A DNA stretch of 44,247 bases from Glutinoglossum americanum (taxonomy: Eukaryota > Ascomycota > Geoglossomycetes > Geoglossales > Geoglossaceae). This document shows positions 11,601-40,184 of this stretch, one piece after another. The number at the start of each line of letters is the position of its first letter. Positions within the stretch are counted from its first letter, which is position 1. The notes beneath the pieces are model-generated. The model worked only from the letters and a program-made list of their open reading frames with translations, made no database searches and had not been told where the DNA came from. The translations under genes and the position numbers were made by a program. The stretch spans positions 351 through 44,597 of the forward strand of contig JAGHQL010000204.1 in assembly GCA_020080175.1 (NCBI GenBank). Direction: 5' to 3'.

Positions 11601-11882
11601 ACGTCCAGTTCGTAAGACCTTTCTTTTTTTTTCTTTGCACATTATCTATACACCAATTACCTAGCTTTAGAATTTAGACGTCAAGACCGTTGCTTCGCAA
11701 GATGGGGAAAGCCAACATCTAATATGCTTGCGTGCGTCATGGGTCCGTGGTACTCCATCCCTCAACGACTGCAAGGAGAAGACACCCCTACTCGTACCGC
11801 AAAGAGAACGGAGATCTGCAGATATGCAGACAAAAGGGAACAGGGATTTCGAGAACTAAAAAAAAAAAAAGTCGATATTAAT

Positions 11883-12035
11883 TAAGCAGGGCTCGAACTT
11901 AAAAGGTTCGGCAGACGCAACTGGTCTACCTACTCCTTCTGTCTACATCCCAATTGGGTATGGTTTTATTTACTCTGCCCCGTGTGCTCAACCACTAGGC
12001 CACGGGGCATTGAGAAAGTGAGTCCGCAAATAAAC
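11883..12035 (-). repeat. tRNA-like repeat, copy 1 (candidate Pol III RNA)
   Basis: Read on the minus strand, the element begins near 12035, has an A-box-like TGGCCTAGTGG (12002-11992), a B-box-like GTTCGAGCC (11898-11890), and a run of 13 T at 11870-11858 that could terminate Pol III. The A-box sits in the loop of an 8-bp hairpin, GCCCCGTG (12008-12001) with CACGGGGC (11984-11977). A second hairpin pairs GGTAGAC (11930-11924) with GTCTGCC (11916-11910), including a G-U pair possible only in the minus-strand RNA. The ends do not form an acceptor stem, so it is not a normal tRNA gene; a tRNA-related SINE or structured RNA fits better. Confidence 0.6.
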
Positions 12036-12204
12036 TTTTATAGCCATTTACCAACCAGCGGCACCAACTCCCCCCCCAAACATGACGGACTATGACACCG
12101 TAAATACAGTCAAGGGGAAAAAATGATGATGACGATTAAAGGCTCCCACACCGTGACACCCGCCCACAAACAGCCACACAAAAAAAAGGGGCAAAAAAAT
12201 GATA

Positions 12205-12358
12205 GCAACCAGACTCGAACCCAAAAAGGTTCAGCGGACCATTTTTTGGTCCGCCTACTCCTCGCCTACATCCCGATTGGGTATGGTTTTATTTACTCTG
12301 CCTCGTGTGCTCAACCGCTAGGCCACGAGGCATTGAGAAACCGGGTGCCCAAATAAAC
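12205..12358 (-). repeat. tRNA-like repeat, copy 2 (candidate Pol III RNA)
   Basis: Same orientation as copy 1 and 323 bp away. It carries A-box-like TGGCCTAGCGG (12325-12315), B-box-like GTTCGAGTC (12220-12212) and a T7 run at 12199-12193. The A-box hairpin is GCCTCGTG (12331-12324) with CACGAGGC (12307-12300); relative to copy 1 a C-G pair has become U-A on both sides. The second hairpin, GCGGACC (12254-12248) with GGTCCGC (12240-12234), is stronger than in copy 1, with one pair changed on both sides. A nearly unchanged core covers AGAGTAAATAAAACCATACC. Both copies share a CAAATAAAC word at the outer edge (plus strand). Confidence 0.6.
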
Positions 12359-12884
12359 ATATATGGGGGGAGGAGGGGGTCTTCCGGCGCCCACGCCGCA
12401 CACAAAGACGTAACGCGTTGGGAAATTCGAAATGTTATATGGTCACTTTGTGCTGAGTAATTGAGTGGAATCCACTGATTCGATACAAAAATAAAAAAAA
12501 TGGAGGGCGAGAGGCTGGAACCAAGTTTTCTAAAGTCACCCTCTGATTAAACAGGGTCGTCATGCAATCGAAAGCTCCGTGGAACTATTGCGATTCTATG
12601 GTTCTTTGTCCCTTTTTTTCCGGGAGGTTCATTTCTATTTCGTCTCTCTCCTAACGGCCCCCGTATTACGCAAAGAATAAAAAAGGGGGGGCCCTCCGGA
12701 GGATAAACTAAAACAAATCTACTTTGGCAAGGAGAAACATCGCCATGTGCGTAACCTCCAGAAAGCCCAGTGGGGCAAGTCCACAACGTGGATAATAGCG
12801 CCCTGTTTCCCTACGAACTAATATGCAAAAACCCACACTAGAAGAACAAGGCGAATATACCCGCGCCACCACTCCAGTGACGCC

Positions 12885-30119: not shown

Positions 30120-31044
30120 TCACCTCTGGACGAAAGGTACCCACACAACCCTATAAGGACTACTTGTATAAGAACCGAAAGGTATCCACACAATCTTATA
30201 AGAATTATTTATATAAGAAACATAGATAAATGCCCAAACCAAGAGGATAACCACAACTAAAGCTACCATTCCACCAACAACCGGTAGAGTCACGGAACCC
30301 TTGAATTGCGGCTCGGAGGTCGCGATTGGTGCTGCAGTTGGTGCTGCAGTATACGTATTAGCCCTTGCAATAAAAAAAAAAAAAATTTTTTTTGGAATAA
30401 TATTGGGAAAAAACAAATAGTTCACTTGGTACACCAGTCTTGACGACCTCTGTGGAATTCTGCAGCACGGCTGTCGCGAACCATGCGGCTTTGAGCTGGT
30501 TCAAGTCCATGTCTTTACAGAGTGGCAGCGCTTTGTCCACTGGTTGGTAGTTGCTGGGGTAGGCATAGTCAGATATGGGTGCACTCTCATACTGGTAATT
30601 AGTTTGCCCTGTCCGATCAGCCCACAAGCACAAAGCCCCCTTCACCAACGGGGTCCCTGGCTGCGAGAGCGCGAAGCAGAGGCAGACTTCGTAGCCATTT
30701 CCGACGCGTCCGTCATTCAAGCGGACACCAGTCAAGTCATATATTCCGGACGTATTGACCGTGTTGTTTCCAAAGGCGTCCATGGCTGCGGTGCATTTGT
30801 TGCCTATGTTCAGGGATTGCGTGTACTGGGAGGTAGTCCCGAGGTTTCCGCAGAGCGGCTCATATCGAACTGCTTGATAGCTGAGGCCGGGGTAGCCTTT
30901 TACGTCTGTTGCTGGGCCATCTCTTATCAGCTGCACGCTATCGAGTGCTAATGCTTGACGAGTCGGCAGACCAAGCAGGAGGAGGATAAGACGCCAGCAG
31001 ATAGCCCAGTGTTGGGGTCGATAATGATGCGTTTTTGAGTTCAT
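30120..31044 (-). CDS. Small secreted or membrane-anchored protein, family unknown
   Basis: Two exons on the minus strand: 31044-30435 and 30343-30120, giving 277 residues. A signal peptide (RLILLLLGLPTRQALA) is followed by an extracellular domain with about six cysteines (including LCGNLG, NKCTAAMDAF, YEVCLCFAL, LPLCKDMD) and several NxS/T sites. A Thr/Ala/Pro linker leads to one membrane segment (LPVVGGMVALVVVILLVWAF) and a short tail made of two copies of a 15-residue unit. The intron (30344-30434) has a long A/T homopolymer, a GCTAAT branch site and a CAG acceptor; splicing joins KT to APTAAP. The in-frame ATG at 31092 is an alternative start. I do not recognise the family. Confidence 0.65.
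30131..30220. repeat. 45-bp tandem duplication, two copies
   Basis: Units 30131-30175 and 30176-30220. They differ mainly by C/T and G/A changes and stay in frame with the minus-strand gene, giving SYINNSYKIVWIPFG and SYTSSPYRVVWVPFV in its tail. Confidence 0.8.
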
Positions 31045-39161: not shown

Positions 39162-39965
39162 CTTCCGTCAGAGAAAATCTGCGGATGCGAAACTGGGAGA
39201 GTCGGACGGATCACTCGATGTGGTTGTTGTCTCACGGCTGGTGGGGTGATTAGGATGTGCGCCGACCTTCCCCATCAGAGAATTAAGCCAGTAAGGATGG
39301 CCCATGGAACAAACCAATCGCCGGGCGCCAATGGACTTGTCTTCCACGCCGCAGATATCCGGGTGGTGGGCTAGTCGTTGCCAGAAATACCCTCCATCAG
39401 AAGAGAAACATCAGCCTCAGAAACCCCCCCGCTTGCTCTTCGCTGTCACCCACCCGCATACACCAGGGCCTTTGTCACTCGAGACTCGAGCGCCACCAAT
39501 TTTTCTTTTCTTTCTCTTCTTTCTTTTTCGCTTTCAACAAAACCAGGACCGCCGGGAATTCTCCGTGTGATCTCCGAACCTTTTTGTGTCGGAGTGGAAG
39601 TCTATCGCTCCGAGACAGGTATGCACGTAGCAGGTACAAGCAGCACTCAGGCACACCGCACAGCATCCAGGCATGTCGTACGATGCAGACGAGGTTTTCA
39701 CGCCAGCCCATCCGTCCGATCATTCCCTAAGGTACTACATCGTAAGTCCGTACTTTATTTACGTACAGCAATCCATATCGACCCGTATTTCATATTGCCC
39801 TCGAGTAAGGACGAGGCTCATCGCTGCCATGTTAGTGCAAGGAATATAGTCAGAGTAGTTATAGCAGAGTACCGCAGCAGAGCAGTTATGGGTGCGGATT
39901 CCATGTAGTGTGGCGAAGCGGCGGGAAGCGAGACCCACCTCTTCTCTCTTCTTTACTGGGGAGCT

Positions 39966-40020
39966 GGAGAACAGAACACGCAGAACAGGCAAGCCAAGAG
40001 AGATAGCGCATCCGCCAAGC
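39966..40020. repeat. 55-bp direct repeat, copy 1
   Basis: Pairs with 40130-40184 without gaps; I count five differences in 55 positions. The best-conserved core is GGCAAGCCAAGAGAGATAG. Confidence 0.85.
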
Positions 40021-40129
40021 ACGCTACTTCACCACCACTACTATACCATAGTAGCAGGTACTCTACATACACTGCGAGTAGAGCCAAGAACTACAGGACA
40101 CCCGGCTACCTGCTCTGCTCTACAATGCC

Positions 40130-40184
40130 GGAGAACAGAGCAGGCAGAAAAGGCAAGCCAAGAGAGATAGGGCATACGCCAAGC
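40130..40184. repeat. 55-bp direct repeat, copy 2
   Basis: Second copy, 164 bp from the first and in the same orientation. The spacer contains a short CTCTAC/GTAGAG hairpin. Confidence 0.85.

What the first reader, a model, noticed from the sequence alone, without database searches (positions are those of the whole stretch)
11883..12358. Two tRNA-like elements with compensated hairpins: a candidate Pol III RNA family
Seen: two ~153-nt copies in the same orientation, 323 bp apart. On the minus strand each has an A-box-like motif (TGGCCTAGYGG), a B-box-like motif (GTTCGAGYC) and a T-run 12-20 nt beyond. In the 8-bp hairpin around the A-box a C-G pair in copy 1 is U-A in copy 2. In the second hairpin an A-U pair becomes G-C and a U-G pair becomes C-G. 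Some pairs work only in the minus-strand RNA. Known: A and B boxes drive Pol III, and paired changes imply selection on RNA structure. Inference: a tRNA-derived SINE or small structured RNA. No acceptor stem forms, so it is not an ordinary tRNA.
Basis: partly seen in the sequence, partly recalled or inferred. Interest (0 to 1): 0.75.

Follow-up and report, generated by a model that had tools for sequence, protein, structure and literature searches.

The report
Dispersed small structured RNA gene family
The two matching stretches are two members of a family of at least 27 scattered copies (21 of them full-length or nearly so) in this probably fungal genome, which look like genes for a small folded RNA made by RNA polymerase III rather than copies of a jumping element; what the RNA does is not known.

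Summary
In detail: two minus-strand copies with A box, B box, T-run and paired changes. They belong to a dispersed family in the same 25.8-Mb genome: at least 27 loci, 21 full-length, 6 broken. Just upstream of the RNA, all 21 carry a TATA-like element (consensus CCCTTATAAGTTTATTT; weak in C268 and C112a). At up to 2 mismatches the element occurs 9 times in the genome, 9 of 9 in the family. In 14 type I copies (75% mean identity) 95.1% of pair cells pair, and two-sided changes exceed all 300 tree-based simulations. A second subtype (6 copies, one group in the tree) keeps TATA element, B box and body but has no A box in hairpin 1. No relevant Rfam match, no consistent A-tail, at most weak signs of target-site duplications. 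Best reading: a new Pol III gene family with a TATA + A/B-box promoter, spread by DNA duplication with decay. A SINE is disfavoured because retroposition of a Pol III transcript would lose the upstream element. Transcription, function and range are untested. Closest analogues: dictyostelid Class I RNAs, rodent 4.5S RNAs.

The parts
11873..12014 (-). Copy 1 (W1), RNA part, type I
   Evidence: CM R1 149.6 bits; this copy was in the model's training set
12027..12043 (-). Upstream TATA element of copy 1 (TATAAAAGTTTATTTGC)
11992..12002 (-). A box of copy 1 (TGGCCTAGTGG), in hairpin 1
   Evidence: 11/11 to TRGYNNARNGG
11977..12008 (-). Hairpin 1 of copy 1 (8 bp)
11946..11962 (-). Hairpin 2 of copy 1: CAU-(A)-CCC AAUU GGG AUG, bulged A; in the most conserved stretch of the family
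   Evidence: no two-sided changes in this helix
11910..11930 (-). Hairpin 3 of copy 1
11895..11909 (-). Hairpin 4 of copy 1 (GAAC..GUUC); its 3' strand overlaps the B box
   Evidence: no two-sided changes in this helix
11889..11899 (-). B box of copy 1 (AGTTCGAGCCC)
   Evidence: 9/11 to GGTTCGANTCC
11858..11870 (-). T-run of copy 1 (13 T), terminator-like
12195..12337 (-). Copy 2 (W2), RNA part, type I
   Evidence: CM R1 149.1 bits; in the training set
12350..12367 (-). Upstream TATA element of copy 2 (CCCATATATGTTTATTTG)
12315..12325 (-). A box of copy 2 (TGGCCTAGCGG)
   Evidence: 11/11
12211..12221 (-). B box of copy 2 (GGTTCGAGTCT)
   Evidence: 10/11
12180..12199 (-). Two T-runs of copy 2 (7 T, then 8 T, five bases between them), terminator-like

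Best explanation
The two copies are paralogous genes of a multicopy family that encodes a small (about 140 nt) structured non-coding RNA transcribed by RNA polymerase III. Inferred steps: TBP/TFIIIB is placed by the TATA element about 25-30 nt upstream; TFIIIC binds the A and B boxes in type I, and the B box alone, or with a different A site, in type II; transcription starts near CTCAATGCC and stops in the T-run. Shown by sequence: the RNA strand keeps four hairpins; hairpins 1 and 3 show paired changes, hairpins 2 and 4 hardly vary, and hairpin 2 is a nearly invariant bulged-A hairpin (CCAUACCC-RAUY-GGGAUGUA). Inferred: that invariant module is the contact site for a protein, or another RNA, in an RNP, with the other arms as scaffold and the 3' U-tract available to La-type proteins. 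At least some copies spread as DNA duplications that carried promoter and flank, followed by decay of some copies (birth and death).
For: Dispersed copies: 17 matches by DNA search, 19 sites by core motif with 0 in the reversed control, 14 sites by 5' motif with 0 in the control; 21 full-length and 6 broken loci in all. Upstream element in 21 of 21 full-length copies, weak in C268 and C112a; at up to 2 mismatches 9 genome sites, 9 of 9 family, one of them (C13) a member first found by the promoter pattern. Covariation on 14 copies: 95.1% of cells paired against 27-47% when slid; two-sided covariation 128 against 28 +/- 14, 0 of 300 tree-based simulations reach it. 27 G-U against 10 A-C cells favours the minus-strand RNA. 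Where flanks are homologous they are more diverged than the RNA (gaps left out): C24-C52 62.1% in flank against 120/139 = 86% in RNA; C27-C276 73.6% against 135/151 = 89%. BLAST between the neighbourhoods of the copies (15 loci of 9.9 kb and 12 kb of window) shows nothing else of 60 nt or more at E 1e-6 than the family units, their extensions and a degenerate extra copy near C112a. None of the 17 copies overlaps a stop-to-stop frame of 200 aa or more. The genome's one U6 match also has a TATA-like CCCTCATAAATGATTT upstream and a B-box-like GTTCGAATC in an apparent intron (by eye).
Against: No expression data. No eukaryotic relatives could be searched, so conservation across species is unknown. 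Hairpins 2 and 4 show no two-sided changes. Only a few single pairs reach significance alone (106-124 clearly; 14-40 and 105-125 weakly). Gene conversion could inflate core identity. Broken copies also keep many pairs when fitted to the model, 17 of 20 with letters in each of two, so structure and promoter do not separate cleanly. The A-B distance is long for a type 2 promoter. Near the inferred start, copies share slightly longer words with their own 3' flank than with other copies' flanks: 4 of 20 own against 25 of 380 cross at 8 nt or more (Fisher p 0.048, permutation of means p 0.10). The transcript's start and end are inferred.
Confidence: 0.78

Rival explanations
1. A tRNA-derived SINE: Pol III transcripts copied back into the genome by a LINE reverse transcriptase.
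For: A and B boxes, dispersed copies, A-box arm like a class II tRNA D-arm (GTGGCCGAGTGGTT, also in the tRNA of L065); the genome has 22 RVT_1 matches, not typed as LINE or LTR; two of 21 copies (C268, C2) have A-runs of 12 and 8 right after the T-run; around the inferred start, 4 of 20 copies against 25 of 380 cross pairs share words of 8 nt or more with the 3' flank (Fisher p 0.048, permutation p 0.10), several of them being family motifs.
Against: The conserved TATA-like element sits upstream of the inferred start in 21 of 21 full-length copies and would be lost on retroposition; further upstream, own flanks share no longer direct repeats than mismatched ones (6.5 vs 6.65 nt); 19 of 21 copies have no A-run of 6 or more near the end; paired changes exceed the tree null; some flanks were duplicated together with the copies; A-B gap 92-104 nt.
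Confidence: 0.12
2. A non-autonomous DNA-type mobile element, or a larger duplicated repeat, that happens to contain a Pol III-like unit.
For: In 6 of 16 copies tested, part of the next 380 nt downstream is recognisably shared; C27 and C276 share about 370 nt upstream; four of the loci hold two copies in the same orientation, 323 to 487 nt apart, one of the two degenerate in three of them.
Against: No common outer border seen; no inverted repeats of 30 nt or more at the copies (shorter ones were not sought); no excess of direct repeats in the upstream window; flanks are far more diverged than the RNA; the conserved part coincides with promoter-to-terminator.
Confidence: 0.07
3. Pseudogenes or relics of a known Pol III RNA (tRNA, 7SL, RNase P/MRP, U6, 5S, vault, Y) too diverged to recognise.
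For: A and B boxes; six broken copies.
Against: No Rfam match in the window and none relevant in 7 loci at E up to 5; ARAGORN 0 in the window; copies keep structure and promoter. The vault-protein search found nothing, but its controls were silent, so it says nothing.
Confidence: 0.03

Closest known systems
Dictyostelid Class I RNAs (PMC7919456; abstract start and passages seen)
   Same: Multicopy lineage-specific structured small RNA genes, recognised by a covariance model plus a conserved upstream element (DUSE); T-run terminator suggests Pol III; variable sequence with one nearly invariant ~11-nt motif
   Different: Other organism and sequence; upstream element ~60 nt from the start rather than ~25-30; the passages seen mention no A and B boxes; here four hairpins and ~140 nt
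Rodent 4.5SI and 4.5SH RNAs (PMC10137851; abstract and introduction read)
   Same: Small Pol III RNAs with A box, B box and a TATA-like box at -31/-24; multicopy; narrow taxonomic range; tRNA-like origin of 4.5SI
   Different: 94-98 nt, box spacing 30-40 nt in that promoter type, tied to B1/B2 SINEs; here the DNA searches (lower bounds) show no high-copy relative
AfuSINE2/3 SINEs of Aspergillus fumigatus (PMC5063351; abstract and section list seen)
   Same: Low-copy fungal elements with Pol III promoter features, AfuSINE2 140-493 bp
   Different: AfuSINE2 has 4-14 bp target-site duplications; here no clear ones, and a conserved upstream TATA element
U6 snRNA gene with intronic B box (this genome; S. 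pombe example recalled)
   Same: TATA-like upstream element plus B box without an A box at the usual place, as in type II copies
   Different: Single match, unrelated RNA

Membership tests
tRNA-derived SINE | A and B boxes in a tRNA-related head | tested here: met
   type I: A box 10-11/11 in 14 of 15 copies, B box 7-11/11; spacing atypical; not met for the A box in type II
tRNA-derived SINE | Target-site duplications | tested here: inconclusive
   upstream window: own 6.5 vs cross 6.65 nt, 3 of 20 own vs 68 of 380 cross at 8 nt or more; start-site window: 5.95 vs 5.48 nt, 4 of 20 vs 25 of 380, permutation p 0.10, 0.16 with T-runs trimmed; no clear duplications
tRNA-derived SINE | Copies begin at the transcription start, no conserved upstream promoter | tested here: not met
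   TATA-like element upstream in 21 of 21 full-length copies, weak in 2; the start site itself is inferred
tRNA-derived SINE | A-rich or LINE-derived tail | tested here: inconclusive
   A-runs of 6 or more after the RNA in 2 of 21 copies; no LINE 3' end was compared
tRNA | Cloverleaf with acceptor stem | tested here: not met
   ARAGORN 0 in the window; a 7-bp end pairing is possible in 2 of 23 copies looked at
Pol III type 2 gene with TATA element | TATA at about -30, A box ~11 nt from start, B box, T-run | tested here: met
   for type I; but the B box lies 92-104 nt after the A box instead of 30-40 (range from PMC10137851)
Pol III type 2 gene with TATA element | Transcription by Pol III | not testable with these tools
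   no RNA or ChIP data
Known Rfam family | Score above a gathering cut-off | tested here: not met
   window 0; 7 loci at E up to 5, four matches, none relevant or above gathering
Dictyostelid Class I RNA | Stem plus 11-nt motif, DUSE ~60 nt upstream | not tested
   compared from passages of the paper only

The most novel reading that the evidence does not exclude
A previously undescribed RNP RNA family of this (fungal) lineage, with one invariant protein-binding hairpin, that has switched promoter type within one genome: type I uses TATA + A box + B box, type II uses TATA + B box only, like the U6 gene of the same genome. The family would then be a natural experiment in how Pol III promoters evolve and a window on an unknown RNP.
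Probability: 0.3. Interest if true: 0.75.

Novelty: new variant of a known kind. Interest (0 to 1): 0.55.

Why it matters
Lineage-specific Pol III RNAs are known in few groups and several have no known function. A family of about 20 full-length copies with a nearly private promoter element, strong structure and two promoter subtypes is easy to test by small-RNA sequencing, and the covariance model would let it be traced through related genomes. It also warns that tRNA-like boxes in a repeat do not make it a SINE.

Tried and rejected
Known RNA families: Rfam at gathering score on the window and at E up to 5 on 7 loci; nothing relevant. Ordinary tRNA: rejected. Vault hypothesis: PF01505 gave 0, but the control genomes were silent too, so it says nothing. 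Acceptor-like closing stem: perfect 7 bp in C1 and C280 only (each 1 of 300 shuffles), next best C278 (21 of 300); not adopted (23 copies). An alternative AAGG-CCUU pairing around hairpin 3 appears in several single-sequence folds but does not vary, so it can be neither supported nor dismissed. The long pairwise alignments over-extend into flanks under that scoring, and its W1-W2 row aligned a sequence with itself; I kept only RNA-part identities of other pairs and took flank identities from BLAST. An A-box-like TAGTTTAGATG at +45 in type II scores 9-10/11 in three copies, no better than the best hits in broken copies; not adopted. Exact scans for the core motif: 0 in genome contigs (bacteria and archaea) and 0 in viral contigs, where a fungal RNA is not expected; phages no match. 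Downstream-flank DNA search with C280 found only itself; a DNA search with C142 found itself and C223. Two PDB sequence searches did not settle the organism. Papers: searches; nothing in the listings described this family, and PMC5640933 (one passage) did not either. On re-check I added the start-site window of the repeat test, the A-runs of C268 and C2, and the weak promoters of C268 and C112a, and for these lowered the main confidence from 0.80 to 0.78 and raised the SINE from 0.10 to 0.12.

Full report
WHAT WAS GIVEN. Both copies are there, on the minus strand: RNA parts 11873-12014 (W1) and 12195-12337 (W2), spacing 323, 79% identical. Boxes, T-runs and the named paired changes are confirmed. 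The host genome is G000, 25,765,983 bases in 317 contigs, window on contig C118. Window genes are eukaryotic (Vps36 with NZF-N, choline-transporter-like, HRQ1-type helicase); 'fungal' is my inference and the species is unknown.

THE FAMILY. A DNA search with W1 gave 17 matches including both window copies. A search with C276 added C113. The core motif AAACCATACCCAATYGGGATGTA at up to 3 mismatches gave 19 sites, control 0, adding C15, C142 and C256. The 5' motif gave 14 sites, control 0, adding C205 and confirming a second C132 copy. The covariance model R1, built from 17 copies, also finds degenerate copies 363 nt upstream of the C112 copy, 487 nt downstream of the C201 copy and, weakly, 361 nt downstream of the C132 copy. 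The promoter pattern added C13 and C296. Total 27 loci, a lower bound because the searches score only the best candidates: 15 full-length type I (W1, W2, C24, C268, C52, C112a, C132, C278, C1, C201, C4, C112b, C280, C2, and the diverged C15), 6 type II (C223, C276, C27, C113, C142, C13; C13 has lost part of hairpin 2), 6 broken (C296, C205, C256, C112a-up, C201-down, C132-down). R1 scores of the 17 training copies are high by construction; the others score C113 59.9, C142 59.1, C15 55.0, C296 33.3, C112a-up 32.5, C201-down 30.0, C13 29.2, C256 26.2 and C132-down 12.6 bits; C205 was picked by pattern, and its 29.0 bits come mainly from hairpin 1. The 12.6 bits of C132-down are no evidence alone, since an unrelated stretch of the tRNA locus L068 scores 14.0; that copy rests on its 5' motif (2 mismatches) and its place. 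Two further R1 matches (17.4 and 13.8 bits) lie on the opposite strand of members and are not counted.

PROMOTER. In 20 full-length copies the ungapped column view upstream shows C at -29 (16 of 20), T at -19 (16), T at -16 (19), T at -15 (17) and T at -2 (18), counted from the first base of the RNA part. Printed copy by copy, all 21 have a TATA-like stretch followed by a T-rich one at this place; it is weak in C268 and C112a, lacks the leading CCC in some (for example C24 and W1), and is shifted by a few bases in C112b and C15. The pattern CCCTTATAAGTTTATTTG at up to 2 mismatches occurs 9 times in the genome, 9 of 9 in the family. At up to 3 mismatches it occurs 35 times against 20 for the reversed pattern; 11 of 35 are family, 8 others were fetched and give no R1 match, 16 were not looked at. 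So the element is nearly private to the family at high similarity, and not distinctive at lower similarity. Of 27 tRNA matches off the probable mitochondrial contig, 17 were looked at by eye; none carries the element, though some have TTTAA-like stretches. The single U6 match has CCCTCATAAATGATTT upstream and GTTCGAATC inside an intron-like insertion. Box A lies about 11 nt after the inferred start, as in type 2 promoters (introduction of PMC10137851), but box B lies 92-104 nt beyond box A in the 14 type I copies with a clear A box, against 30-40 there.

STRUCTURE. RNAalifold on the 14-copy MAFFT alignment A1 (not fitted to structure) gives hairpins 1-4. I dropped its three inner hairpin-1 pairs for counting: 25 pairs, 350 cells, 95.1% paired; slid controls 27.0-46.9%; 6 pairs with two-sided change. 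Of 500 shuffles, none reaches the paired percentage, the number of two-sided cells or the covariation score; 13 reach the number of pairs with two-sided change and 68 the number of pair types. With a FastTree tree and 300 simulations that keep each column's number of changes, two-sided covariation is 128 against 28 +/- 14 (0 of 300), summed G 62.7 against 13.4 +/- 6.0 (0 of 300), paired fraction 0.951 against mean 0.859 and maximum 0.94. The signal is in hairpins 1 and 3; hairpins 2 and 4 hardly vary, so covariation neither supports nor opposes them. G-U cells 27, A-C cells 10: the minus-strand RNA pairs better, though these cells are not independent, and by pairs the contrast is only 9 against 8 of 25. 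In the model-fitted alignment A3, copies outside the training set keep: C113 21 of 21 pairs with letters, C142 21 of 22, C15 19 of 23, C13 15 of 17; but two broken copies keep 17 of 20 each, so this measure does not separate intact from broken copies (the script's H4 column there lumps hairpins 3 and 4).

TWO SUBTYPES. Type II keeps the hairpin-1 stem but its loop has no A box (by eye); the best A-like words elsewhere in its first part score 8-10/11, B boxes 8-10/11, C13 not scored. Type II forms one group in an IQ-TREE tree of 22 rows (99/99, midpoint root for drawing only); part of that signal is the replaced loop itself. Whether type II lost the A box or type I gained it is open.

HOW COPIES SPREAD. 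BLAST between neighbourhoods shows only the family units and their extensions. Leave-one-out profiles recognise part of the 380 nt downstream in 6 of 16 copies (C24, C52, C278, C201, C4, C2), with no control as high among 173; 10 of 16 are not recognised, and W2, C15, C113, C142 and C13 were not tested. Upstream flanks are recognised in C276, C27, C132 and C280, with C223 marginal, of 16 (189 controls). So at least some copies arose by DNA duplication that carried flanks. Where flanks are homologous their identity is far lower than that of the RNA (62.1% vs 86% for C24-C52; 63.3% vs 83% for C2-C4; 73.6% vs 89% for C27-C276, gaps left out), which fits selection on the RNA, though gene conversion could contribute. 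Target-site duplications: in the window -180 to -26 own flanks share no more than mismatched ones (6.5 vs 6.65 nt; 3 of 20 vs 68 of 380 at 8 nt or more). In the window around the inferred start there is a slight excess (5.95 vs 5.48 nt; 4 of 20 vs 25 of 380; Fisher p 0.048; permutation of means over 21 copies p 0.10, 0.16 with T-runs trimmed); the four words (in C132, C280, C2, C27) include pieces of the family's own promoter and start motifs, so I read it as weak. A-runs of 6 or more follow the T-run in C268 and C2 only, of 21. None of the 17 copies overlaps a stop-to-stop frame of 200 aa or more; some overlap shorter ones, and the broken C132-down copy overlaps one of 404 aa.

WHAT IT WORKS LIKE. 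Shown: family, promoter-like element, boxes, terminator-like runs, conserved fold. Inferred: Pol III transcription, start and end points, an RNP with the invariant bulged-A hairpin as contact site. The nearest analogues in print that I saw are dictyostelid Class I RNAs (passages) and rodent 4.5S RNAs (abstract and introduction). A resemblance of the A-box arm to the D-arm of the tRNA in L065 (leucine-type by recall) is noted by eye and may only reflect the A-box consensus. The family was not found in the paper listings; many journals are not held.

VERDICT. Real, more than chance, and best read as a gene family for a small structured Pol III RNA, not a SINE. Function and taxonomic range remain open.

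Noticed in passing
L039 1501-1680 (G000:C280:33219-33398): The single U6 match appears to carry an intron of about 70 nt (GTAAGT...TGTAG) that contains a B-box-like GTTCGAATC, as recalled for S. pombe U6.
   Followed up: partly
L037 and L038, upstream of the type II copies: C27 and C276 share about 370 nt of upstream sequence at 73.6% identity, nature unknown.
   Followed up: no
L074 (G000:C205): A family member with upstream element and hairpin 1 that runs into an A-run and then apparently unrelated sequence: a 3'-broken copy.
   Followed up: partly
window 39963-40020 and 40127-40184: A 58-nt direct repeat, 90% identical, 164 nt apart.
   Followed up: no
window 30131-30219: A two-copy 45-nt tandem repeat.
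   Followed up: no
G000:C161: A 29.9-kb contig with 15 of the 42 tRNA matches, probably the mitochondrial genome.
   Followed up: no
L024, L026, L029, L031, L032, L035, downstream of the copies: Six of 16 copies tested share a decayed downstream flank; an alignment suggests a TCTCGTTGCAGTCGTTGAAGG-like stretch in several copies; whether it has a role is unknown.
   Followed up: partly
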